Shown: positions 1-10,528 of the stretch, piece after piece
Layout of the letters: every line of letters starts with the position of its first letter
Numbering within the stretch: position 1 is the first letter of the stretch
NCBI GenBank assembly: GCA_030642185.1
Contig: DAOWOG010000015.1
Location: 1 to 10,528 of the forward strand
Length of the DNA stretch: 10,528 bases
Source: Helicobacteraceae bacterium
GTDB taxonomy: Bacteria; Campylobacterota; Campylobacteria; Campylobacterales; Sulfurimonadaceae
Direction of reading: 5' to 3'
The notes under the pieces: model-generated
What the model was told of the DNA's origin: nothing
What the model saw: the letters and a program-made list of their open reading frames with translations, nothing else
Databases searched by the model: none
Program-made: the position numbers and the translations under genes

Positions 1-411
1 CTTCGGCATCAGCCTCAATTTAAAAAATTGACACATTTTGAATGTATCAAGCGTATTCAGACACTTTTCCCGCCGCATCTTCAACGCCTTATCCTTTATG
101 GCTACATCCGTAATCAGATACTTTTTTTCGTACTGAACCATCCCGGTGCCAAACAAGAATTCGATATTATAATAGGTTCAATTAAAGCACCTTTAAAACA
201 CTATACTCCGCCTGAGTGTTCAGAAACCTCATTCAGTGATATACGGGCCTATGTTTCGCATAAACGGCCCTTGTCAGAAACTAAAAAACGCCCGACAGTC
301 TATCAATTCCATGAACGTTCCGTCGGAAACTTCTCTAATGTCACCAGCCATAAAACCTTGCACAATATCATTGAAAACATCCGTCAAATCATCCATGAAA
401 ACAAGCATTAA
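1..411 (+). CDS. Hypothetical protein, possibly DUF721/DciA-like, 5' truncated by window edge
   Basis: The reading frame is open from base 1 and ends at TAA 409-411, leaving about 136 residues. A TTG at 28 could start it, but no ribosome binding site precedes that codon and the frame stays open upstream, so I treat the gene as cut by the window edge. The segment around LILYGYIRNQILFFVLNHPG, followed by AKQEF, has the alternating hydrophobic strand pattern and 'hP.a..E' ending of the KH-like core of DUF721 proteins. That family includes DciA, which works with the replicative helicase DnaB. The C-terminal half is polar, with no motif I recognise. Its 3' end overlaps uvrC by 17 bases, so the two are probably co-transcribed and possibly translationally coupled. 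The family call is pattern recognition only; a lineage-specific protein of unknown function is the alternative. Confidence 0.6.
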   Translation, partial: LRHQPQFKKLTHFECIKRIQTLFPPHLQRLILYGYIRNQILFFVLNHPGAKQEFDIIIGSIKAPLKHYTPPECSETSFSDIRAYVSHKRPLSETKKRPTVYQFHERSVGNFSNVTSHKTLHNIIENIRQIIHENKH

Positions 412-2191
412 ATCCCTGCCCGCCAAGCCGGGTGTTTATCAGTATTTCGATACTAAAGGCCGTCTGCTCTATATCGGAAAAGCCAAAAACCTCTCAAATC
501 GGGTCAAAAGCTATTTTCGTTTTATCCCCGAACTTGAAGCAAATCCTAACTTAAGTCCGCGGATTAAAATAATGATCAACGAGACGGTTTCCATGCACTA
601 CATCGTTGTTGAGAGTGAACATGATGCACTGATCCTGGAGAACTCGCTGATCAAGCAGCTCAAACCAAAATACAACATTCTCCTGCGCGATGATAAAACC
701 TACCCCTATCTGTACATTGATTTAAACGAAAAATATGCCCGCTTCGAAATCACCCGTAAAGTGGTAGAAGGAAAAAACATCCGTTATTTCGGACCTTTTT
801 CCATCGCTGCACGTGATATTCTCGATTCACTTTATGAACTCTGCAAACTTGTTCAAAAAAAAAGTTGCCTGCAGGGAGGCAAGGCCTGTCTGTATTACCA
901 ACTCGATAAATGCCTTGCACCCTGTGAAAAAAGCGTCTCTTCTGATATCTATGGCTCTATTATAGAAAGGGCGATTTACTATATAGAGCACAAGAGCGCA
1001 CTCATCAAAAAACTGCATGACAGGATGACCTTTTATGCCGAGGAGATGCGTTTTGAAGAGGCGGCAAATCTGCGTGACCGCATCGAACGGATTAAAAAAA
1101 GTGAGCTCAGTTCCCAAATCGATTTGGCAAACAGAGCAGACTTTGATATTTTTGCTGTCGCCGAGAAGGGGGGAAAGTTCGCCATTGTCCGCCTTTTCAT
1201 GCGACACGGAAAAGTCGTCTCCAGTACCCATGATATCATCACAGCCAATGACTATGTCCAAAAAGATGAAATTTATGAACGTATACTGCTTGAATTTTAC
1301 GGCAGTGAAAAACCGCCGGTAACGGCTCCGATCCTCATTGCAGACAATTTTCATTCACGCATACTTGTCCAGGAACATTTAAGTCGGCTTTTCGGCAAAA
1401 AAGCGACCATTGATGTACCGCAGCGCGGAAATAAGAAGAAGCTGATTGAACTGGCCAGGACCAATGCTAGAGAACTATTGAAAAACAGCACATTGACACC
1501 ACAGGACGCATTAAGTGAAAAAGTCAAAGAACTCTGCCGGCTCAGGCGCCTTCCCGAGCGCATCGAAGTTTTTGACAATTCCCATATGGCCGGCGAAGCT
1601 GCAGTAGGCGGAATGATCGTTTTTGACAAGGGAAAATTCGATAAAAAAAGCTATCGGCAGTTTCATCTTGACGCACGTGACGAGTATGCACAGATGCGTG
1701 AAACACTTTCGCGGCGTATCAACAGTTTTGAAACAAATCCCCCACCGGACCTGTGGATTATTGACGGAGGGAAGACACTCCTCTCACTGGCGACAGACCT
1801 GCTTGAATCCAATGGTGTCAACCTCGACGTCATCGCCATCTCCAAAGAGAAAATTGATGCCAAATCACATCGTGCGAAAGGCAAAGCACATGATCAGATC
1901 CACACCGTTGATGAGACCTTCAGACTTTCGCCTTCGGATAAGCGTCTGCAACGGATTCAGCGGCTTCGCGATGAGGCACATCGCTTTGCAATCAGCTTTC
2001 ATAAAAAAACGAAACAGAAGCGTGATCAGCAATCCAAACTGCTTGCACTTCATGGTATTTCAACTGCAAAAGTCAAAAAACTTTTAAACCATTTCGGTAC
2101 ATTTGAAATGATTTCGCTCGCAGCAGAAGAGACTATTGCATCAATATTGAACAGTGCCGATGCAAAGACAATCAAGAAATTATACGAATAA
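395..2191 (+). CDS. uvrC: UvrABC excinuclease subunit C
   Basis: UvrC makes both incisions flanking bulky DNA lesions during nucleotide excision repair, after UvrA/UvrB damage recognition. The 598-residue product matches the usual family length. The N-terminal GIY-YIG nuclease domain (about 8-95) shows PGVYQYF, YIGKAKNL with Y26 and R36 in catalytic spacing, and E82 in LILENSLIKQ. Four cysteines (C158, C165, C173, C177) match those reported to bind an iron-sulfur cluster in E. coli UvrC. A UVR domain that contacts UvrB lies at about 202-232 (RFEEAANLRDRI). The C-terminal RNase H-like nuclease has D394 (VFDNSH), D457 (IIDGGK) and H529 (DEAHRFA). A helix-hairpin-helix DNA-binding tail lies at about 548-590. 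I chose ATG 395 because MKTSIKSLPAKPGVY is where family members begin. A longer frame from 236 would add residues that merely shadow the upstream gene. No strong Shine-Dalgarno precedes ATG 395, in keeping with coupling to the overlapping upstream gene. Confidence 0.97.
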   Translation: MKTSIKSLPAKPGVYQYFDTKGRLLYIGKAKNLSNRVKSYFRFIPELEANPNLSPRIKIMINETVSMHYIVVESEHDALILENSLIKQLKPKYNILLRDDKTYPYLYIDLNEKYARFEITRKVVEGKNIRYFGPFSIAARDILDSLYELCKLVQKKSCLQGGKACLYYQLDKCLAPCEKSVSSDIYGSIIERAIYYIEHKSALIKKLHDRMTFYAEEMRFEEAANLRDRIERIKKSELSSQIDLANRADFDIFAVAEKGGKFAIVRLFMRHGKVVSSTHDIITANDYVQKDEIYERILLEFYGSEKPPVTAPILIADNFHSRILVQEHLSRLFGKKATIDVPQRGNKKKLIELARTNARELLKNSTLTPQDALSEKVKELCRLRRLPERIEVFDNSHMAGEAAVGGMIVFDKGKFDKKSYRQFHLDARDEYAQMRETLSRRINSFETNPPPDLWIIDGGKTLLSLATDLLESNGVNLDVIAISKEKIDAKSHRAKGKAHDQIHTVDETFRLSPSDKRLQRIQRLRDEAHRFAISFHKKTKQKRDQQSKLLALHGISTAKVKKLLNHFGTFEMISLAAEETIASILNSADAKTIKKLYE

Positions 2192-2253: not shown

Positions 2254-2667
2254 ATGGGTATAATTGAACCTATGGAAGAAGAATTTATATTTGAGGGACG
2301 TGTCATTGTCAGTGAAACAGACACAAAAGGGATCATAACATATGCCAACCGGAAATTTTGCGAAATCTCCGGATACAGCGTAGATGAACTGATCGGAAAA
2401 CCCCATAACATTATTCGCCATCCGGATATGCCGAAAAAAGCTTTTAAAACAATGTGGGAGACGATCCAAAAAGGTCAAAACTGGCATGGCGTCGTCAAAA
2501 ATCTGCGAAAAGACGGAAAATACTACTGGGTTGAGACAGAAATCGCCGCATCCCGTGATGATGCAGGCAACATAAAAAGTTATATTGCCGCACGTAAACC
2601 TGCTACCCGCAAAACCATCGAAGAGACGGCAGCCATATACAAAACCATGCTAGAAAATGAAAGTTAA
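2254..2667 (+). CDS. Stand-alone Aer/CetB-like PAS domain protein (putative FAD redox sensor)
   Basis: This 137-residue soluble protein is essentially one PAS domain. Residues 24-50 carry the PAS core (GIITYANRKFCEISGYS). Residues 52-60 read NIIRHPDMP, followed by AFKTMW, W77, VKN and KDGKYYWV. This is the signature of the Aer PAS family, whose members bind FAD and sense redox or energy state. No output domain follows: the last 20 or so residues are a short polar, helix-forming tail. The closest functional parallel I know is CetB of Campylobacter jejuni, a cytoplasmic PAS protein that acts through a separate membrane partner. By inference it may feed the hybrid kinase encoded two genes downstream. 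Start ATG 2254 follows AAAGG at 2241-2245 with an 8-base spacer; ATG 2272 is a weaker alternative. It opens the four-gene cluster, with 9 bases to the next gene. FAD binding is inferred from motif similarity; another cofactor, or none, is possible. Confidence 0.88.
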   Translation: MGIIEPMEEEFIFEGRVIVSETDTKGIITYANRKFCEISGYSVDELIGKPHNIIRHPDMPKKAFKTMWETIQKGQNWHGVVKNLRKDGKYYWVETEIAASRDDAGNIKSYIAARKPATRKTIEETAAIYKTMLENES

Positions 2668-2671
2668 GGAG
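2665..2671 (+). promoter_or_regulatory. Ribosome binding site supporting a GTG start
   Basis: TAAGGAG overlaps the TAA stop of the PAS gene and lies 5 bases before GTG 2677. This strong Shine-Dalgarno supports the GTG start of the Hpt protein and implies close translational linkage between the two genes. Confidence 0.75.
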
Positions 2672-2676
2672 TTTTA

Positions 2677-4269
2677 GTGCTGATATATAACCATAATAAG
2701 GAATTTGTCGGTATCGATGATGAAGACCTGCAGCATCTCGGATACAGGTCTTTAGCCGCTTTTCTTCAGGATCACAATGACATTGCCGATCTTTTTGTCA
2801 AGCAACCGGGCTATATCCATAATTTTAAGAACTTTCCATGGATCGATTTTGTTATGCATGCCGATGCAGAAGAATCAAAAGCCATTATCAAGACAAAATC
2901 AAAAAGCTTTTCATGCGAGATCATTGTTAAGGCATTTTTTCTGGTTGACTCTCCGACTGAAGAGAGCTATGCTGTTTCACTCAAACACCTAAAGAATGCT
3001 GACGGCAGCGTTATGGGAGAGCCGGAACTGGAAGAAAATGAGAAAATAGTCATGGATGTCGACGATGATCTCGGTATGATGCCCTTTGATAATTTAGATT
3101 CAACGGTTTTAAGCGAACCCGACCTGCTTGATATTCCGGATATCGAAGTTCCAAGCTCATTTCAGACGCCGCAGTATCAAGCCGAAGAGACTTTGGACCT
3201 TGAAAAGCCCTTTGATCTAGGCGATTTTGACTTAGAGACTGAAACAGAACCTGCAATGCCTGAGGATACCGTCAGTCATGATGATGCACACTATCTGGAA
3301 AACCTTAAAATACCTGAAGACTATATTTTCGATCCTCACGTTGCCTCCGATGAACTCGGTCTTCCGGTAGAGCTTATAAATGACTTTATCGGCGACTTCA
3401 TTCAACAGGCTTATGAGTTTAAAAGAGAACTTTATGAAGCTACCATCAGAGAGGATTACAATGAGGTGCATCTTCTCTCTCACAAACTTAAAGGCGTTGC
3501 TGCCAATCTACGTATCGAAAATGCTTTTGAAGCACTGAGTATTATCAATAACTCGACGGAGCAGGCAGAGATCGAGGCTCACCTCAAACAGCTCTACCGT
3601 TTTGTTGCCAAACTTGAAGGAAAGGAGCTTCCTGAATTTAATCCGGAAACTCCGAAAGCCGTATCAGCACCAACGGCAGAAGCCGAACCGGAACAGGTGA
3701 CGGAAAAAGAGACCTTCACTTTGGACGATGACATCTATGACTTTGACCTTGTGTTGGATACTGAACCTGAACCCAAGGAAGAAGAGCTTATGGCGGACAT
3801 GCCGATATCGATAGAAGATGATCTTTTTATCGATAGTCCGGTTTCACCTGAAATCGACATACCTCCTCTGGAAGATGAACCTGTAGCCCCACCGGTTGAA
3901 GACGAACTCCCGGTTCCATCCAGTGTAGAGGGCATAGAAGCAAACGAGCCCGATCAGCGTGATGCTGTTCAACTCCGGTATGATCTTGTTTCAGCTTCTG
4001 CAGAATTGGGACTGCAAGCTGATTTCGTACGCGAACTCATCAGTGACTTTGTCTCAGATGCCGACAGTTCGCGTTTTGATATCAACGAGGCACTCGAAAA
4101 TGACAATCTCGCCAGCGTACAGGAGTTGGCCGTCGAACTTAAAGGCATCACTGACAATCTCCGGATAACAGAACTGTCTTCAGTTTTACAGACACTGATA
4201 CATAACAATGACATCTCTGTGGCGAAAAATGCCGTAGCAGATTTTTACAACCTGATTGATCAGTTGTAA
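2677..4269 (+). CDS. Tandem Hpt-domain protein with unassigned N-terminal domain; second Hpt lacks the histidine
   Basis: This 530-residue soluble protein starts at GTG. Residues 1 to about 108 form a compact domain (MLIYNHNKEFVGIDDEDL; PGYIHNF; PWIDFV) that may be PAS-like or lineage-specific. An acidic, Pro-rich linker follows. Hpt 1 spans about 225-312 and contains LLSHKLKGVAANLRI, with H269 as predicted phosphoacceptor. A second acidic linker (about 320-430) has DDDIYDFDL and repeated Pro/Glu/Asp stretches. Hpt 2 (about 440-530) begins ELGLQADFVRELISDFV and carries ELAVELKGITDNLRI. The two Hpt segments align across the core helix, but V486 occupies the His position, so the second cannot act as a normal phosphotransfer domain. 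Hpt proteins shuttle phosphoryl groups between receiver domains, and the hybrid kinase and lone receiver next door are the obvious partners. The gap to the kinase gene is 32 bases. Family assignment of Hpt 1 is firm; the role of the rest is inference. Confidence 0.88.
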   Translation: MLIYNHNKEFVGIDDEDLQHLGYRSLAAFLQDHNDIADLFVKQPGYIHNFKNFPWIDFVMHADAEESKAIIKTKSKSFSCEIIVKAFFLVDSPTEESYAVSLKHLKNADGSVMGEPELEENEKIVMDVDDDLGMMPFDNLDSTVLSEPDLLDIPDIEVPSSFQTPQYQAEETLDLEKPFDLGDFDLETETEPAMPEDTVSHDDAHYLENLKIPEDYIFDPHVASDELGLPVELINDFIGDFIQQAYEFKRELYEATIREDYNEVHLLSHKLKGVAANLRIENAFEALSIINNSTEQAEIEAHLKQLYRFVAKLEGKELPEFNPETPKAVSAPTAEAEPEQVTEKETFTLDDDIYDFDLVLDTEPEPKEEELMADMPISIEDDLFIDSPVSPEIDIPPLEDEPVAPPVEDELPVPSSVEGIEANEPDQRDAVQLRYDLVSASAELGLQADFVRELISDFVSDADSSRFDINEALENDNLASVQELAVELKGITDNLRITELSSVLQTLIHNNDISVAKNAVADFYNLIDQL

Positions 4270-4301
4270 TGCAAACCATAGTTTAGAAAAGGCCAGGAAC
4301 C

Positions 4302-7300
4302 ATGCAATTAGGACTTAAGAACCGTCTACGACTTATCAGTCTTCTTCCGATTTTGATTCTCTTCTCGTTGTCAAGTTATTACGTATACTCTTCTTATATG
4401 AGTTACCAGTCAGCACAACAGCTGCAAATAAAACTTGCCGAGAACAGAGTCACCAATCAACTTGTCAACAATCTCTCCCGAGAGCGGGGAATGACAGTTA
4501 TGTATATGGGAAACTCTTCGGAATCTACCCATAAATCGCTTGTGACACAGCGTGCTATTGTCGACGAAAAATTGCAGCAATATCTCCAGTCTGTCTCAAG
4601 TGACACCCAAAACCTTCATACCTATCTTAAAAGAATCCAGCAAAGCCGTGAAGCTGTTGATGAGCAGGCGATAGAGTTTGATGAAATATTTAACGACATC
4701 TACGGTGCTGCGCAGGAGGAGTCGCTTAATTACCTTCAGCAACTGGCTGCTTTTCGTATTGATGATCAAATCTCGGCACTGACAACGGCCTATCTGAATC
4801 TTGCAAGTGCAAAAAGCTTTACGGCTGCTGAACGTGATTTTATCACTTATACCCTGGCCCGTTCTACAAAATTTGATTCAGAAGAGCTCAATAGCTGGCT
4901 TTCACTTATCGGCAAAGCCGATACAACAAATGTCAGAGTTTCCATTTCACCGGAAACGTCAAAAGATCTGGCTGAACTTTTTGAAGATGAAGACAACATA
5001 GAACTCTTTGAGGATATCACCACTGAACGTGCCGAAATCATGCAGGCGGTCAATGACGGTCTCTACTCAACACAGTCAGGGATCTGGTTTACCATGCTCT
5101 CTGAAAAGATCAACCTTATTGATGAAGCCGAACATATTTTGCTCACTGCCATGGACCTCCGTGCGGATTCGGTTCAAAATGAAGCGTTGCAGGTCCTGAG
5201 TGCTGCCGTCATCATCTGGGTTGTCGCTATTTTGATCGGATTGCTGGGGTATCTTCTTTCGGCTGAAATTTCTAAAAACATCAAGAATCTTGAGTTGGTA
5301 CTTAACCGTGCAGCCGAAGGCGCATCTGAGGAGACGGGCGAAGAGTCCCTGCATGGCAATATTAATCTCGACACCTCTGAAGGTACGGCACAGGCCTATG
5401 CACTGCTTGAAAACATTATCGATCAGACACGCCGTGATAAAGAGTTTGCGATGGAGGCAAGTGAGGCAAAATCAATGTTCCTTGCCAATATGTCGCATGA
5501 AATCCGTACGCCGCTTAACGGTATCGTCGGTTTTACCGAACTGCTCAAGGATACGTCACTTCAGGAAGAACAGCGTGAATTTATTGACATTATTGAAAAG
5601 AGTTCTGAGAACCTGCTTGAAATTATCAATAATATCCTCGATCTCTCAAAAATTGAAAGCAATAAACTTGAAATTGAAGATATCGTCTTTAATCCGCTTG
5701 AAGAGTTTGAAAGTGCTGTTGAAGTCTATGCTGTCCGCGCTTCCGAAAAACATATCGATCTCGGCTGCTTCATCGATCCGTCGCTTGAACGTCCGATCAA
5801 GGGAGATCCGACCAAGATCAAAGAGGTGGTTATCAATCTTCTCTCCAATGCCATTAAGTTCACCAATAACGGCGGCGCGATTAATGTCAAAATTCACCGC
5901 GAAGAGGGCAGTGAAGAGAATCAGATACGCATACGTTTTGAGGTAGAAGACAGCGGTATCGGTGTCACCGCTGAGCAAAAAGCAAAAATTTTCGAGGCAT
6001 TCAGTCAGGCAGACACTTCGATTACCCGTAAATACGGCGGTACCGGTCTTGGTCTCACCATCTCCAGTCGATTTGTTGAATTGATGGGCGGACAGCTTGA
6101 TCTTGAAAGCGAAAGCGGCAAAGGAACCACCTTCTTCTTTACACTTGACTTTGAAGAGATCGAGACCCTTAATGAACCGGTAAAAGGATCATTTGGCAAT
6201 CTTAATGTCATTGTTCTGGAACATGAAGCCAAAAACAAAAAGCAGACAGACTACCTGCACGAATACCTTGAGTATTTCGGTACAAATTACACCTCCGTCA
6301 AAGATCTCAGAGAGCTGCAGCAGCTTGAAAAGAAAAGTGATTATGACCTGATATTTATCGATTTTGATTATGTTGATGCGGAGGACCTCTCAAAATACAG
6401 TGCTTCACAGGCTGAAATGATTTTAATCACAAAATCATACTACATGAAAAAAATCGAATCATTAAAACTCAATATTTTCAAAGTACTTTACGAACCGATC
6501 AACGGTACCAAGATCATGACCATTCTCGAGTCGCATGATGCTGATACATTTGCAAACAAGCGCGCTCAAAAAAGTCGTAAGAAAGTCAGTGCCGACACTA
6601 AATTTGCCGCAAATGCCTTGGTCGCCGAAGACAACGTCATCAACCAGAAACTGATCAAACGTACACTTGAAGATCTTGGCCTGGGTATCACACTTGCCAA
6701 TAACGGTCTGGAAGCCTTTGAAAAACGTAAAAATGGTGATTTTGACATTATCTTTATGGATATCCAGATGCCGGTGCTCGACGGTATTGAAGCAACCCTT
6801 GAAATTCTCGATTTTGAAGAAGACTTCAATAAACCGCATATACCGATTATCGCCCTGACCGCCAATGCACTCAAAGGTGACCGCGAACGCTTCTTAGATG
6901 CCGGTATGGATGAGTACACGACCAAACCGTTAGTCCGTACGCAAATAATGAGTATCCTCAATCAGTTTGTCGGACATAAAATCATTGATAAACATGCCCT
7001 TAAAAAGAAGGAAGCTGAAGTTGCACCTGTTCATAAAGAGGAGGTGCCACAACTGGTCATTGATGAGAGTACGCCGGAGATCACTCCGCCAAAGACAAAT
7101 GAGGAGGCACCTGCTCCTGTTATCGAAGAGGTTAAACCTGAAGTCATAGCACCGGCCTATGCAGCCGATATTCTTCTCGCTAAAAAAGGCATGTTGGAAA
7201 ATAAACTTTTCGGGCAGCTTCTCAAAGAGTTAGACTACAGTTATGAGACAGTGAAAAAATATGATGCACTTACCTCAACACTGAATGAGAAAGCATTTAA

Positions 7301-7508
7301 ACTGGTCCTTTTTGACAAAGAGATGCCAAAGATGAATCTTAAGGAACTCCACGGCATTATTTCATCTAACGACCATGATACTGCTGCAGTAATGATGGTT
7401 GATCCCGCCAGCGAAATAAATCCGGACGACAAAAACTATACCGATGATATTATTAAAAATGTCATCAACAAAGACCTTTTGCGTCTTATTTTTGAAAAAT
7501 ATGTATAA
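4302..7508 (+). CDS. Membrane hybrid histidine kinase: NIT-like sensor, HisKA-HATPase, three receiver-like domains
   Basis: The 1068-residue inner-membrane sensor kinase has a first membrane segment at about 9-29 and a second at about 298-320. These enclose a helical periplasmic domain with the NIT (nitrate/nitrite-sensing) pattern: LSRERGMTVMYM (R60, E61, R62, G63), a QRAIVDEKL segment, and a second AAERDFITYTL element near 174-184. A HAMP-like or coiled linker follows. HisKA has H399 in MSHEIRTPLNG. The ATPase has N512/N516, DSGIG at 550-554, KIFEAFSQAD and GGTGLGLTI at 579. REC1 (about 630-745) keeps D687 and T710 but has H641 in the acidic pair and E731 for the conserved Lys. REC2 (about 770-888) is complete: E776/D777, D820, T853, K875. 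After a Pro/Glu-rich linker (about 905-952), REC3 has D1005 in LFDKEMPKM but K961/K962 instead of acidic residues. ATG 4302 follows AAAAGG at 4287-4292. Ligand identity is inferred from the NIT resemblance. Confidence 0.93.
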   Translation: MQLGLKNRLRLISLLPILILFSLSSYYVYSSYMSYQSAQQLQIKLAENRVTNQLVNNLSRERGMTVMYMGNSSESTHKSLVTQRAIVDEKLQQYLQSVSSDTQNLHTYLKRIQQSREAVDEQAIEFDEIFNDIYGAAQEESLNYLQQLAAFRIDDQISALTTAYLNLASAKSFTAAERDFITYTLARSTKFDSEELNSWLSLIGKADTTNVRVSISPETSKDLAELFEDEDNIELFEDITTERAEIMQAVNDGLYSTQSGIWFTMLSEKINLIDEAEHILLTAMDLRADSVQNEALQVLSAAVIIWVVAILIGLLGYLLSAEISKNIKNLELVLNRAAEGASEETGEESLHGNINLDTSEGTAQAYALLENIIDQTRRDKEFAMEASEAKSMFLANMSHEIRTPLNGIVGFTELLKDTSLQEEQREFIDIIEKSSENLLEIINNILDLSKIESNKLEIEDIVFNPLEEFESAVEVYAVRASEKHIDLGCFIDPSLERPIKGDPTKIKEVVINLLSNAIKFTNNGGAINVKIHREEGSEENQIRIRFEVEDSGIGVTAEQKAKIFEAFSQADTSITRKYGGTGLGLTISSRFVELMGGQLDLESESGKGTTFFFTLDFEEIETLNEPVKGSFGNLNVIVLEHEAKNKKQTDYLHEYLEYFGTNYTSVKDLRELQQLEKKSDYDLIFIDFDYVDAEDLSKYSASQAEMILITKSYYMKKIESLKLNIFKVLYEPINGTKIMTILESHDADTFANKRAQKSRKKVSADTKFAANALVAEDNVINQKLIKRTLEDLGLGITLANNGLEAFEKRKNGDFDIIFMDIQMPVLDGIEATLEILDFEEDFNKPHIPIIALTANALKGDRERFLDAGMDEYTTKPLVRTQIMSILNQFVGHKIIDKHALKKKEAEVAPVHKEEVPQLVIDESTPEITPPKTNEEAPAPVIEEVKPEVIAPAYAADILLAKKGMLENKLFGQLLKELDYSYETVKKYDALTSTLNEKAFKLVLFDKEMPKMNLKELHGIISSNDHDTAAVMMVDPASEINPDDKNYTDDIIKNVINKDLLRLIFEKYV

Positions 7509-7522
7509 ACCAAGGATAATTT

Positions 7523-7900
7523 ATGCCAGATAAAAAACTTAAAGTACTTGCCGTTGACGATGATATGATCAATCTGAAGCTCTTAAAATCTATGCTGATG
7601 AAAACCAGCTATGTTGCTGAAGTCGTTGAAGCCAGAAATGGTGCTGACGCCCTTTCAGAACTTAAAATGAATGACGATATTGATATTATACTTTTAGATA
7701 TTATTATGCCGGTGATGGGCGGTATTGAAATGCTCAAGATTTTGCGTGCCGATGATAGTTTAACGCAGCTGCCGGTCATTGTATTGACAACAGATGAGAC
7801 GAAACGGGTTGAAGCCCTCGACAATGGAGCAAACGGCTTTTTAATGAAGCCGATCAGAGAACGTGATCTCAGTGCAAAAATTGCTCAATTGATTGTATAA
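7523..7900 (+). CDS. Stand-alone CheY-like response regulator receiver
   Basis: This 125-residue single receiver domain has no output module. All canonical positions are present: the acidic cluster D12/D13/D14 in LAVDDD, phosphoacceptor D59 in IILLDIIMPVMGG, T89 in VIVLTTDE, and K109 in FLMKPI. The length is that of a CheY-type protein. It starts 14 bases after the kinase stop and has AAGGA at 7512-7516, 6 bases before ATG 7523, so it is very likely the last gene of the signalling operon. It is the predicted terminal or intermediate acceptor of phosphoryl groups from the Hpt protein (H269). Lacking a DNA-binding or catalytic domain, it must act by binding another protein, or serve as a phosphate sink. 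A direct role at the flagellar motor cannot be judged from sequence alone. Confidence 0.95.
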   Translation: MPDKKLKVLAVDDDMINLKLLKSMLMKTSYVAEVVEARNGADALSELKMNDDIDIILLDIIMPVMGGIEMLKILRADDSLTQLPVIVLTTDETKRVEALDNGANGFLMKPIRERDLSAKIAQLIV

Positions 7901-7909
7901 ACCTTACAA

Positions 7910-7931
7910 GGTACACTCAGGAGAGTGTACC
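7910..7931. terminator. Perfect stem-loop between convergent genes, candidate bidirectional terminator
   Basis: GGTACACTC (7910-7918) and GAGTGTACC (7923-7931) form a perfect 9-bp stem closed by an AGGA loop. It fills nearly the whole 31-base gap between the receiver stop (7900) and the exonuclease stop (TAG on the minus strand at 7932-7934). Position and symmetry fit a shared terminator or 3'-end-stabilising hairpin for both transcripts. No T-tract follows on either strand, so it is not a textbook intrinsic terminator. Confidence 0.5.
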
Positions 7932-8731: not shown

Positions 8732-9022
8732 CTACTCTTCAAACAGACGTTTAAACAACGTATCCATATCAAAAGAGGTCAGCCGTTTTACACCAAAAAT
8801 ATAATGGGGAAGCAGCTCTAAAAAAAGGTATCCCAGGAGGATCATAGGGTAGAACACCAGCACTTCTATATACAAGGTTTTATAACGGTATCGTGATTTG
8901 ATCCATCTTAATGCCCACTTGGCACCGCTCATCGCCAGCACAATCTGAAAACTGACAACAAATCCCCATACCAGATAAGTCATTCCGACAGCATAACCGA
9001 TAATCCAAAGCCAAAATTCCAT
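8732..9022 (-). CDS. Small membrane protein of unknown function
   Basis: I do not recognise this 96-residue protein. It has an N-terminal hydrophobic stretch at about 3-32 (including IIGYAVGMTYLVWGFVVSF), a basic middle segment at about 39-48 (RWIKSRYRYKTLY, Arg/Lys/Tyr-rich), a second hydrophobic segment at about 52-74 (EVLVFYPMILLGYLFLELL), and a mixed-charge tail ending FKRLFEE. This predicts a two-helix inner-membrane protein with a positively charged loop that should face the cytoplasm, placing both ends outside. Tryptophan and tyrosine are abundant. The ATG start is preceded only by a weak AAAAG, immediately upstream. The gene diverges from the DUF819 gene across a 41-base region with a perfect palindrome, and precedes the exonuclease gene on the same strand. 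Codon use looks like its neighbours and the hydrophobic pattern is coherent, so I take it as a real gene. Confidence 0.7.
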   Translation of the reverse strand: MEFWLWIIGYAVGMTYLVWGFVVSFQIVLAMSGAKWALRWIKSRYRYKTLYIEVLVFYPMILLGYLFLELLPHYIFGVKRLTSFDMDTLFKRLFEE

Positions 9023-9063: not shown

Positions 9064-10188
9064 ATGATTGAAAACGCCCCTGTCTATCTTCTCAGTATTA
9101 CACTCCTTGCACTGCTGCTTGGTACTGCAGAAACATTCAGCCGTCACAAACTCTTTACCTATTTGCCGGCAGTGGTACTTATATATGCATCCGCGATGCT
9201 GCTTGCGCAATTTGGCCTCTGGGAAAAAACAGAGCAGATCGACACAGCTTACACACTGACTAAACGCTATCTTCTTCCCGCTATGCTTTTTTTGATGCTG
9301 CTGCGTATTGATCTGAAACACTTTGCGACACTCGGAAGAACGCTGCTGATCGCTTACTTCAGCGCGGTACTCTCAATCGCTTCTGCCTTTATACTTATAT
9401 TTTGGCTTCTTGGTTTTGATCAGGACGCTGCCGGTGTCTTTGGGGCACTGGCAGGCAGTTGGACCGGAGGAACGGCCAATATGCTGGCTGTTGCATCTGC
9501 ATTAAACGTTGATGAGAACCTGATGGGCTATGCTCTGATCGTTGACTCCATCGACTATACGCTATGGGTGATGCTTCTGCTTGCCTTGGTCGGACTGGCC
9601 CCGGTATTTAACCGATGGAGCAGAGCCGATTCTGTTACAACTTCAACGCTGCACGTGAGCACACCCTTAAGCAGGCGAAGCTTTTTCACACTTCTGTTTC
9701 TTACTTTCATAGCAGCACTGATTGCCGTAAAACTCGCTGCTGAACTTGGAGGCCTCTCAGGCACCACCTGGGCTGTTTTGATCAGCACACTGCTCGGCCT
9801 GCTGGCTTCACGAACCAGACTGCGTAATCTTGGAGGCAGTGCAACGCTCTCTACTGCCATGCTCTATCTTTTAGTCGGACTCATCGGTTCGCGTGCCAGT
9901 TTCAACGGTTTTGATGCGGTCCCGCTCTATCTGCTTGCCGGTATCCTGATCCTCTCTGTCCATGCCGTTATCATGATCATCGTTGCAAAAATATTCAGAC
10001 TCGACCTGTTTAGTATCGGGGTGGCCTCACTGGCCAATATCGGCGGTGTCGCTTCAGCACCTATTCTCGCCGCTGCCTACAACCGTTCGCTGATCGGTGT
10101 TGCCGTTTTGATGGCGATTATGGGTTATCTGATCGGCACGGTTGCCGGATTGGCGATCGGTACCATTTTACAAAAAATTGCTGCATGA
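9064..10188 (+). CDS. DUF819 family polytopic membrane protein (putative transporter)
   Basis: The 374-residue, very hydrophobic protein has about ten predicted membrane segments. Residues 129-145 carry the DUF819 (YjcL-like) signature LAGSWTGGTANMLAVAS. A related Gly/Ala-rich motif, ASLANIGGVASAPILAAAY, occurs at 321-339, suggesting two pseudo-symmetric halves as in many secondary transporters. A hydrophilic loop lies at about 183-206. The biochemical function of DUF819 is not established as far as I know. Its stop codon overlaps the start of a dipeptide-epimerase-like gene (ATGA at 10185-10188), so a role in dipeptide or related substrate uptake is a reasonable inference. The start at ATG 9064 is tightly constrained: an in-frame TAA lies at 9043-9045, no other usual start codon falls between, and the first membrane segment begins within about five residues. 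No Shine-Dalgarno precedes it. Confidence 0.85.
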   Translation: MIENAPVYLLSITLLALLLGTAETFSRHKLFTYLPAVVLIYASAMLLAQFGLWEKTEQIDTAYTLTKRYLLPAMLFLMLLRIDLKHFATLGRTLLIAYFSAVLSIASAFILIFWLLGFDQDAAGVFGALAGSWTGGTANMLAVASALNVDENLMGYALIVDSIDYTLWVMLLLALVGLAPVFNRWSRADSVTTSTLHVSTPLSRRSFFTLLFLTFIAALIAVKLAAELGGLSGTTWAVLISTLLGLLASRTRLRNLGGSATLSTAMLYLLVGLIGSRASFNGFDAVPLYLLAGILILSVHAVIMIIVAKIFRLDLFSIGVASLANIGGVASAPILAAAYNRSLIGVAVLMAIMGYLIGTVAGLAIGTILQKIAA

Positions 10189-10528
10189 AGATCACGCACC
10201 TTTCGCTTAAAATTGAAAAAATTGCACTGCAGACCCCCTTTGTCACCGCGCTGCGCAGAGTCGAGAGTGTAGACAACGTTATTATCACGCTTCATACCGA
10301 CACGCCGCTGATCGGAGAGGGTGCCGCACCCGCTACCAAAGCCATTACCGGTGAGGATCTGAAAAGTATCTCCCAAACTATTGAAAAAACGATATTTCCC
10401 CTGCTGCGCAATCAGACTTTTGAGCTTAAGACACTTCTCGAAGTGACGCATCAAGCCTGTAAGGGCAACAGCAGTGCCAAGGCCGCTGTCGAAATCGCCC
10501 TCTACGATCTGGCATCAAAAAACAGAGA
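10185..10528 (+). CDS. Dipeptide epimerase-like enolase-superfamily protein, 3' truncated by window edge
   Basis: The first 114 residues are present and the frame stays open to the window end. The start ATG overlaps the stop of the DUF819 gene as ATGA. The visible part is the capping domain of the mandelate racemase/muconate lactonizing family: PFVTALRRVESVDNVIITL, then IGEGAAPATKAITGED, and near the end GNSSAKAAVEIALYDLASK. The order TA.R, GEG.A.P...ITGE and SAKAA.E.AL.DL is that of L-Ala-D/L-Glu epimerases (YcjG/YkfB type), which interconvert L-Ala-D-Glu and L-Ala-L-Glu during murein peptide recycling. The catalytic barrel with its two lysines and metal ligands lies beyond the window, so substrate specificity cannot be read; related dipeptide epimerases use other dipeptides. 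Family confidence is high, exact substrate low. Confidence 0.87.
   Translation, partial: MKITHLSLKIEKIALQTPFVTALRRVESVDNVIITLHTDTPLIGEGAAPATKAITGEDLKSISQTIEKTIFPLLRNQTFELKTLLEVTHQACKGNSSAKAAVEIALYDLASKNR

What the first reader, a model, noticed from the sequence alone, without database searches (positions are those of the whole stretch)
2254..7900. Compact four-gene phosphorelay with redundant modules and no output domain
Four adjacent + strand genes, separated by 9, 32 and 14 bases, encode a PAS protein, a tandem Hpt protein, a three-receiver hybrid kinase and a lone receiver. The set contains every relay step (H399, D820, H269, D59) but no DNA-binding, cyclic-di-GMP or other output domain. 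I know of no characterised system with this exact layout. Inference: the lone receiver acts on a protein target, or the module modulates another pathway such as taxis.
Basis: partly seen in the sequence, partly recalled or inferred. Interest (0 to 1): 0.72.

Follow-up and report, generated by a model that had tools for sequence, protein, structure and literature searches.

The report
Conserved phosphorelay operon without output domain
Four neighbouring genes encode a bacterial signalling chain that passes a phosphate from a membrane sensor to a small free-floating switch protein; the same gene set sits beside the same DNA-repair gene in many relatives, including ones that cannot swim, so its unknown target is probably not swimming.

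Summary
In detail: four + strand genes (gaps 9, 32, 14 bp) encode an Aer-type PAS protein, an Hpt protein, a NIT-domain hybrid kinase and a lone receiver, with H399, D820, H269 and D59 in place. Corrections: only one Hpt copy keeps its His (copy 2 has Val486); only the middle kinase receiver is intact; the Hpt protein starts with an unnoticed divergent PAS fold. The set is not local: of 103 distinct kinase loci (a biased sample) 101 hold the Hpt gene and 96 uvrC. H399, D820 and both NIT arginines are invariant in 67 of 67 aligned kinases. The taxis idea is not supported here: the own MAG, one near-complete relative and nine Sulfurovum-type genomes lack chemoreceptors, FlhA and FliM yet keep kinase and Hpt protein (seven of the nine also receiver and Hpt His). 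Best reading: an inherited relay sensing respiratory or redox state (nitrate/nitrite, flavin) that ends in a single-domain regulator acting on an unknown protein. The Hpt His changes copy between families and is lost in Sulfurospirillum; in two genomes the same Hpt sits inside a ChePep-like protein. A new variant of a known kind; no study of it was found in the open-access library.

The parts
395..2191 (+). uvrC, conserved upstream neighbour, not itself part of the relay
   Evidence: TIGR00194 E 7e-157 for 407-2188; start at ATG 395 read; uvrC in 96 of 103 distinct kinase loci
2254..2667 (+). stand-alone Aer-type PAS protein, 137 aa, predicted flavin sensor
   Evidence: PAS_3 2e-20; PDB 8dik aerotaxis receptor 3.7e-32, 3ewk 2.1e-33
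2677..4269 (+). PAS-Hpt-pseudoHpt protein, 530 aa, GTG start
2677..3012 (+). N-terminal divergent PAS fold (aa 1-112)
3322..3618 (+). Hpt copy 1 with phospho-acceptor His269 (codon 3481-3483)
   Evidence: 55% identical over 98 aa to the Hpt of a ChePep-like protein of genome G016
3970..4266 (+). Hpt copy 2, degenerate: Val486 in place of His
4302..7508 (+). hybrid kinase, 1068 aa: TM-NIT-TM-HisKA-HATPase-REC1-REC2-REC3
4458..5150 (+). NIT domain (aa 53-283) between two hydrophobic segments, with Arg62 and Arg178
   Evidence: PF08376 3.9e-28; both Arg in 67 of 67 kinases; hydrophobic windows near aa 9-30 and 305-325
5466..5660 (+). HisKA with His399
   Evidence: H in 67 of 67
6204..6533 (+). 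REC1, degenerate receiver fold (aa 635-744)
   Evidence: fold; D687 in 57 of 67
6618..6959 (+). REC2, intact receiver with Asp820
   Evidence: Response_reg 773-886; D777, D820, T853, K875 in 67 of 67
7164..7502 (+). REC3, degenerate receiver (acidic pair is KK) that keeps Asp1005
   Evidence: fold; D in 66 of 66 with the column
7523..7900 (+). single-domain response regulator with Asp59
7910..7931 (.). perfect 9-bp inverted repeat between convergent genes, possible end of the transcript
   Evidence: no T run follows on the + strand and the terminator scan did not list it

Best explanation
A vertically inherited multistep phosphorelay operon of free-living Campylobacterales. The membrane kinase reads a ligand outside the cytoplasm through its NIT domain (nitrate or nitrite most likely), phosphorylates itself on His399 and passes the phosphate to Asp820 of REC2, then to His269 of the PAS-Hpt protein, then to Asp59 of the lone receiver. 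The Aer-type PAS protein (FAD, redox) and the PAS at the head of the Hpt protein add cytoplasmic redox information; REC1, REC3 and Hpt copy 2 are docking or regulatory. The phosphorylated receiver acts by binding an unlinked protein. In this organism that protein is not the flagellar motor or a chemoreceptor array. Shown: gene order, residues, folds, conservation, absence of flagellar and chemotaxis markers. Inferred: the direction of phosphate flow, both ligands, the roles of the degenerate domains, and the target class.
For: Every relay residue is present. H399, the REC2 pocket and both NIT arginines are invariant in 67 of 67 kinases (the window and 66 named loci). Of 69 distinct loci that have a detected Hpt His and room for the next gene, 68 carry the receiver with its Asp. 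In the four f7 loci read no Hpt His was detected, and no ortholog-grade receiver was found in 16 of 16 f7 genomes: the two ends of the last step are lost together. PAS-HPT, HPT-SEL1, SEL1-HK and HK-RR gaps are operon-like. L134 carries PAS-HPT-small TPR-like gene-HK-RR with no uvrC in the 15-kb stretch. UvrC and kinase identities correlate, rho 0.61, against a maximum of 0.18 in 500 permutations of 65 loci. The PAS protein matches the Aer PAS structure.
Against: In 19 of 26 distinct loci without a detected Hpt His (20-bit limit) the receiver keeps its Asp, so there the kinase may feed the receiver directly, another Hpt may serve, or the flow differs; two of the 26 (L128, L170) may be gene-model or contig problems. 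In the f1 genome G049 a His-bearing Hpt protein lies beside uvrC with no kinase or receiver after it (L052) and no kinase match at E 1e-150 in the genome. One kinase (L085, by length N. salsuginis) lacks NIT and one genome (G106) lacks the receiver. No solved NIT homolog was found by sequence. No binding, phosphotransfer or target data exist.
Confidence: 0.68

Rival explanations
1. The module is an accessory chemotaxis or flagellar pathway: the lone receiver is a second CheY and the PAS protein a CetB/Aer-like energy-taxis input.
For: The PAS protein is Aer-type; C. jejuni has PAS-only proteins Aer1 and Aer2 working with Tlp9 (PMC9665402 passages); the receiver is CheY-sized; in two f1 genomes the same Hpt subfamily lies inside a ChePep-like protein.
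Against: Own MAG, G191 and nine f6 genomes have 0 of 11 hits to MCPsignal and to FlhA while both controls hit, and none of the 11 is among the 171 FliM-positive genomes; the kinase and Hpt genes are present in the loci read from all 11. [quoted passage not shown]
Confidence: 0.12
2. The receiver is mainly a phosphate sink or feedback element for the kinase, and the real output is a response regulator encoded elsewhere that is fed by the Hpt protein.
For: 26 receiver hits in the own genome, the lone receiver and REC2 included, offer candidates; a single-domain receiver acting as a hub is known (MrrA, PMC5964349, search listing).
Against: The receiver lies within 900 bp after the kinase in 88 of 95 distinct loci with room, with its Asp in 87 of those 88.
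Confidence: 0.15
3. The gene set is a decaying or non-functional remnant hitchhiking next to uvrC.
For: Degenerate REC1, REC3 and Hpt copy 2; no Hpt His detected in the f20 and f7 loci read; Asp to Asn in the receiver of S. cavolei; kinase missing in G049.
Against: Kinase and REC2 residues invariant in 67 of 67; the unit is also kept away from uvrC (L134).
Confidence: 0.03

Closest known systems
BarA/GacS-type hybrid kinases (NCBIfam PRK11107 BarA, best kinase-core match)
   Same: Membrane hybrid kinase with HisKA, HATPase and a receiver; matched over aa 380-907 at E 8e-128
   Different: Score 428 bits against a cut-off of 890; here the Hpt is a separate PAS protein, the sensor is NIT, there are three receivers, and no DNA-binding regulator follows
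Alphaproteobacterial CckA-ChpT-CtrA and MrrA-type relays (abstract starts in the listing, and recall)
   Same: Hybrid kinase, separate phosphotransfer protein, single-domain receiver as a hub
   Different: ChpT is not an Hpt-family protein (recalled); no NIT or Aer-type PAS; other phylum
C. jejuni Tlp9 (CetA) with Aer1 and Aer2 (PMC9665402 passages)
   Same: Stand-alone PAS protein of Aer type
   Different: Partner there is a chemoreceptor; the own genome has none, and here the PAS gene is 9 bp from an Hpt gene
ChePep (Campylobacterota chemotaxis protein, polar partner of CheZ; PMC11237671 passages)
   Same: In 2 of 21 genomes with a ChePep-like protein scanned (G016, G063) the same Hpt subfamily is present in it; Hpt 55% identical over 98 aa
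   Different: ChePep-like proteins have a receiver-like N-terminus and acidic repeats; those read in context lie beside gmk
NarX/NarQ, McpN and NasR nitrate sensors (PMC8199190 passages)
   Same: Conserved arginines in the sensor domain; the NIT domain is that of NasR
   Different: No sequence match to a solved structure; no NarL or ANTAR output

Membership tests
His-Asp-His-Asp multistep phosphorelay | HisKA with His and an ATPase; hybrid receiver with Asp, acidic pair, Thr and Lys | tested here: met
His-Asp-His-Asp multistep phosphorelay | Hpt domain with phospho-acceptor His | tested here: met
   Met in the window (His269); not detected in the f20 (Sulfurospirillum) and f7 loci read
His-Asp-His-Asp multistep phosphorelay | Phosphate actually flows along the chain | not testable with these tools
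   needs purified proteins
Single-domain response regulator | Receiver only, with D, T and K of the active site | tested here: met
Aer-type PAS | Sequence match to the Aer PAS domain | tested here: met
   8dik E 3.7e-32, with the RHPDMPK segment aligned
Aer-type PAS | Binds FAD | not testable with these tools
   flavin spectrum needed
NIT nitrate/nitrite sensor | NIT profile and two conserved arginines | tested here: met
   PF08376 3.9e-28; R62 and R178 in 67 of 67; that these are NasR's two arginines is inferred
NIT nitrate/nitrite sensor | Ligand is nitrate or nitrite | not testable with these tools
   binding assay needed
Chemotaxis pathway component | Genome holds chemoreceptors and a flagellar motor for it to act on | tested here: not met
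   own MAG and 10 more genomes:
BarA/GacS equivalog | Score over the curated cut-off | tested here: not met
   428 of 890 bits

The most novel reading that the evidence does not exclude
The relay is an old respiration-sensing pathway of Campylobacterota that signals through ChePep: ChePep-like proteins also persist beside gmk in genomes without flagella or chemoreceptors (G000, G140, G151), and in two genomes the relay's Hpt is fused into the ChePep-like protein. ChePep would then have begun as a partner of this relay and been recruited to chemotaxis later.
Probability: 0.08. Interest if true: 0.75.

Novelty: new variant of a known kind. Interest (0 to 1): 0.5.

Why it matters
It is a strongly kept signalling locus of free-living Campylobacterales, important sulfur and nitrate users, yet the source names seen for the Hpt protein are 'Hpt domain-containing protein' and the like or 'hypothetical protein'. 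It offers a ready natural experiment: families that move or lose the phospho-His, lose the receiver, or lose all motility while keeping the kinase. Finding the receiver's partner would reveal an output that is none of the usual fused ones.

Tried and rejected
Flagellar/chemotaxis output: rejected for this organism. Output domain fused to the kinase in long relatives (L130, L131): only receiver and receiver-like matches were found beside the kinase and NIT domains. A second Hpt hidden in the kinase: none in the loci scanned. A solved NIT homolog by sequence: none at E 1. Promoter and terminator scans: 14 against 12.2 expected and 6 against 5.1, so uninformative. The missing receiver of family f7 elsewhere in the genome: only generic receivers, 32-44% identical, in 16 of 16. 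A note I wrote said that family f6 lacks the PAS gene; one search corrected this (L124, L125, L127, L128, L133 have it, five of nine f6 loci). The Hpt HMM was seeded with both window copies, so their scores are not independent; the other f1 copy-2 domains, not in the seed, score 34-75 bits. Papers: nine full-text searches, six aimed at the relay and three at ChePep; none listed a paper that I recognised as describing the locus. Of seven papers only passages were read. The survey of Campylobacterota signalling PMC9239204 has outside tables that I did not see and that may list these genes.
Full report

CONSERVATION. The Hpt protein hits 134 of 199 genomes of the order, partial matches such as ChePep-like proteins included, and the kinase 94 of 199 at E 1e-150. 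I read 40 stretches around Hpt hits (one of them, L061, is the ChePep locus), 18 more (11 around kinase or Hpt hits, 7 around ChePep-like or other Hpt hits) and 80 named loci. They were chosen because they match these proteins, so they measure linkage, not frequency. Of 137 stretches without L061, 34 were dropped (12 with a kinase already counted, 22 without a kinase ORF over 600 aa, many cut by a contig end), leaving 103 distinct loci: 96 hold uvrC, 101 the Hpt gene, 72 a detected Hpt His, 60 PAS, 24 a small Sel1/TPR protein between Hpt and kinase. This small gene is absent from the window's family in the loci read and occurs in Hydrogenimonas- and Sulfurospirillum-type loci. G048 carries PAS-HPT-small gene-HK-RR with no uvrC in the stretch (L134). 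UvrC and kinase identities correlate (rho 0.61; 0 of 500 permutations reach it; 65 loci), as expected of vertical descent.

HOW IT WORKS. In 67 of 67 aligned kinases (window plus 66 named loci) H399, D777, D820, T853, K875, R62 and R178 are kept. A second alignment of 37 (window plus 36 G-genome loci) agrees where the region is present; L064 is cut by its contig end and L085 lacks NIT. Nitrate sensors bind with arginines, and NIT is the domain of NasR (PMC8199190 passages); that R62 and R178 do the same is inference. The PAS protein matches the aerotaxis-receptor PAS at 3.7e-32; FAD is inferred. Phosphate order is inferred from domain logic.

MOVING HISTIDINE. In 14 of 14 two-copy proteins of family f1 the His is in copy 1 only; in 8 of 8 of family f4 it is in copy 2 only; four of six f18 proteins have two His copies; in the four f20 (Sulfurospirillum-type) and four f7 proteins no His was detected. 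Among 95 distinct loci with an Hpt gene and at least 450 bp after the kinase: His with receiver Asp 68, His without receiver 1, no His with receiver Asp 19, no His with receiver Asn 1, neither His nor receiver 6. The Asn case is S. cavolei (L079, same kinase as L191). PAS follows the His: 56 with both, 12 His only, 1 PAS only, 26 neither (95 loci with uvrC and Hpt gene). These are related lineages, so the counts are not independent events. The 19 speak against a strictly Hpt-dependent last step. So does G049, where a His-bearing Hpt protein stands beside uvrC without kinase and receiver (L052; no kinase match); G063 also has no kinase match, and its Hpt gene is cut by a contig end (L063).

NOT TAXIS HERE. 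FliM is found in 171 of 199 genomes but in no f6 genome, nor in G000 or G191. MCPsignal and FlhA are absent from G000, G191 and nine f6 genomes (0 of 11) and present in both controls (2 of 2). G000 is only 80% complete, but the ten others are 99-100% complete. G140 (2,217,891 bp) and G025 (2,101,285 bp) have the exact lengths of S. lithotrophicum and N. salsuginis, both described as non-motile (passages). [quoted passage not shown] All nine f6 genomes keep kinase and Hpt protein, eight with uvrC in the stretch and one (L127) at a contig end (L085, L086, L124-L128, L132, L133). Seven of the nine have Hpt His, kinase and receiver; G106 lacks the receiver and in G162 no Hpt His was detected.

CHEPEP LINK. 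A protein between fliR and gmk in G016 has a receiver-like N-terminus, acidic repeats and an Hpt 55% identical to the window's. Calling it ChePep rests on this arrangement and on recalled synteny; Howitt 2011 was not held. Hpt is present in 2 of 21 genomes scanned (25 rows, 4 duplicates, several cut short). ChePep-like genes persist beside gmk in G000, G151 and G140 with no fliR match in the stretch. This is suggestive of shared partners, no more; in G063 the fused Hpt exists although no kinase of this family was matched.

VERDICT. A real, conserved phosphorelay with a single-domain receiver, for which I found no study; a new variant of a known kind. Sensing of respiratory conditions is likely, flagellar output in this organism is not, and the target is unknown.

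Noticed in passing
L117:1456-2394; L118:5624-6466; L119:5142-6020: ChePep-like genes beside gmk persist in genomes without chemoreceptors, FlhA or FliM; in the window's own genome the receiver Asp position reads Glu.
   Followed up: partly
L061:6863-8857; L089: In two f1 genomes (G016, G063) an Hpt domain of the relay's subfamily lies in the ChePep-like protein.
   Followed up: partly
L052:7178-8137: In G049 a shorter, one-copy, His-bearing Hpt protein stands beside uvrC with no kinase or receiver after it.
   Followed up: partly
window 8735-9022 (-): 96-aa protein with no Pfam or NCBIfam match; a 59% identical relative lies at the same place in L136.
   Followed up: no
window 1-411: End of a reading frame overlapping the uvrC start; a similar-sized gene before uvrC in relatives gives a weak DciA match, under the cut-off in the one tested.
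   Followed up: no
window 9064-10188 and 10185-10526: DUF819 membrane protein overlapping an enolase-superfamily (MR_MLE) gene, kept together in L047, L136 and L140.
   Followed up: no
L085:5113-7515: The kinase beside uvrC in the genome of N. salsuginis length is 800 aa and lacks NIT, while longer kinase relatives lie elsewhere in that genome.
   Followed up: no
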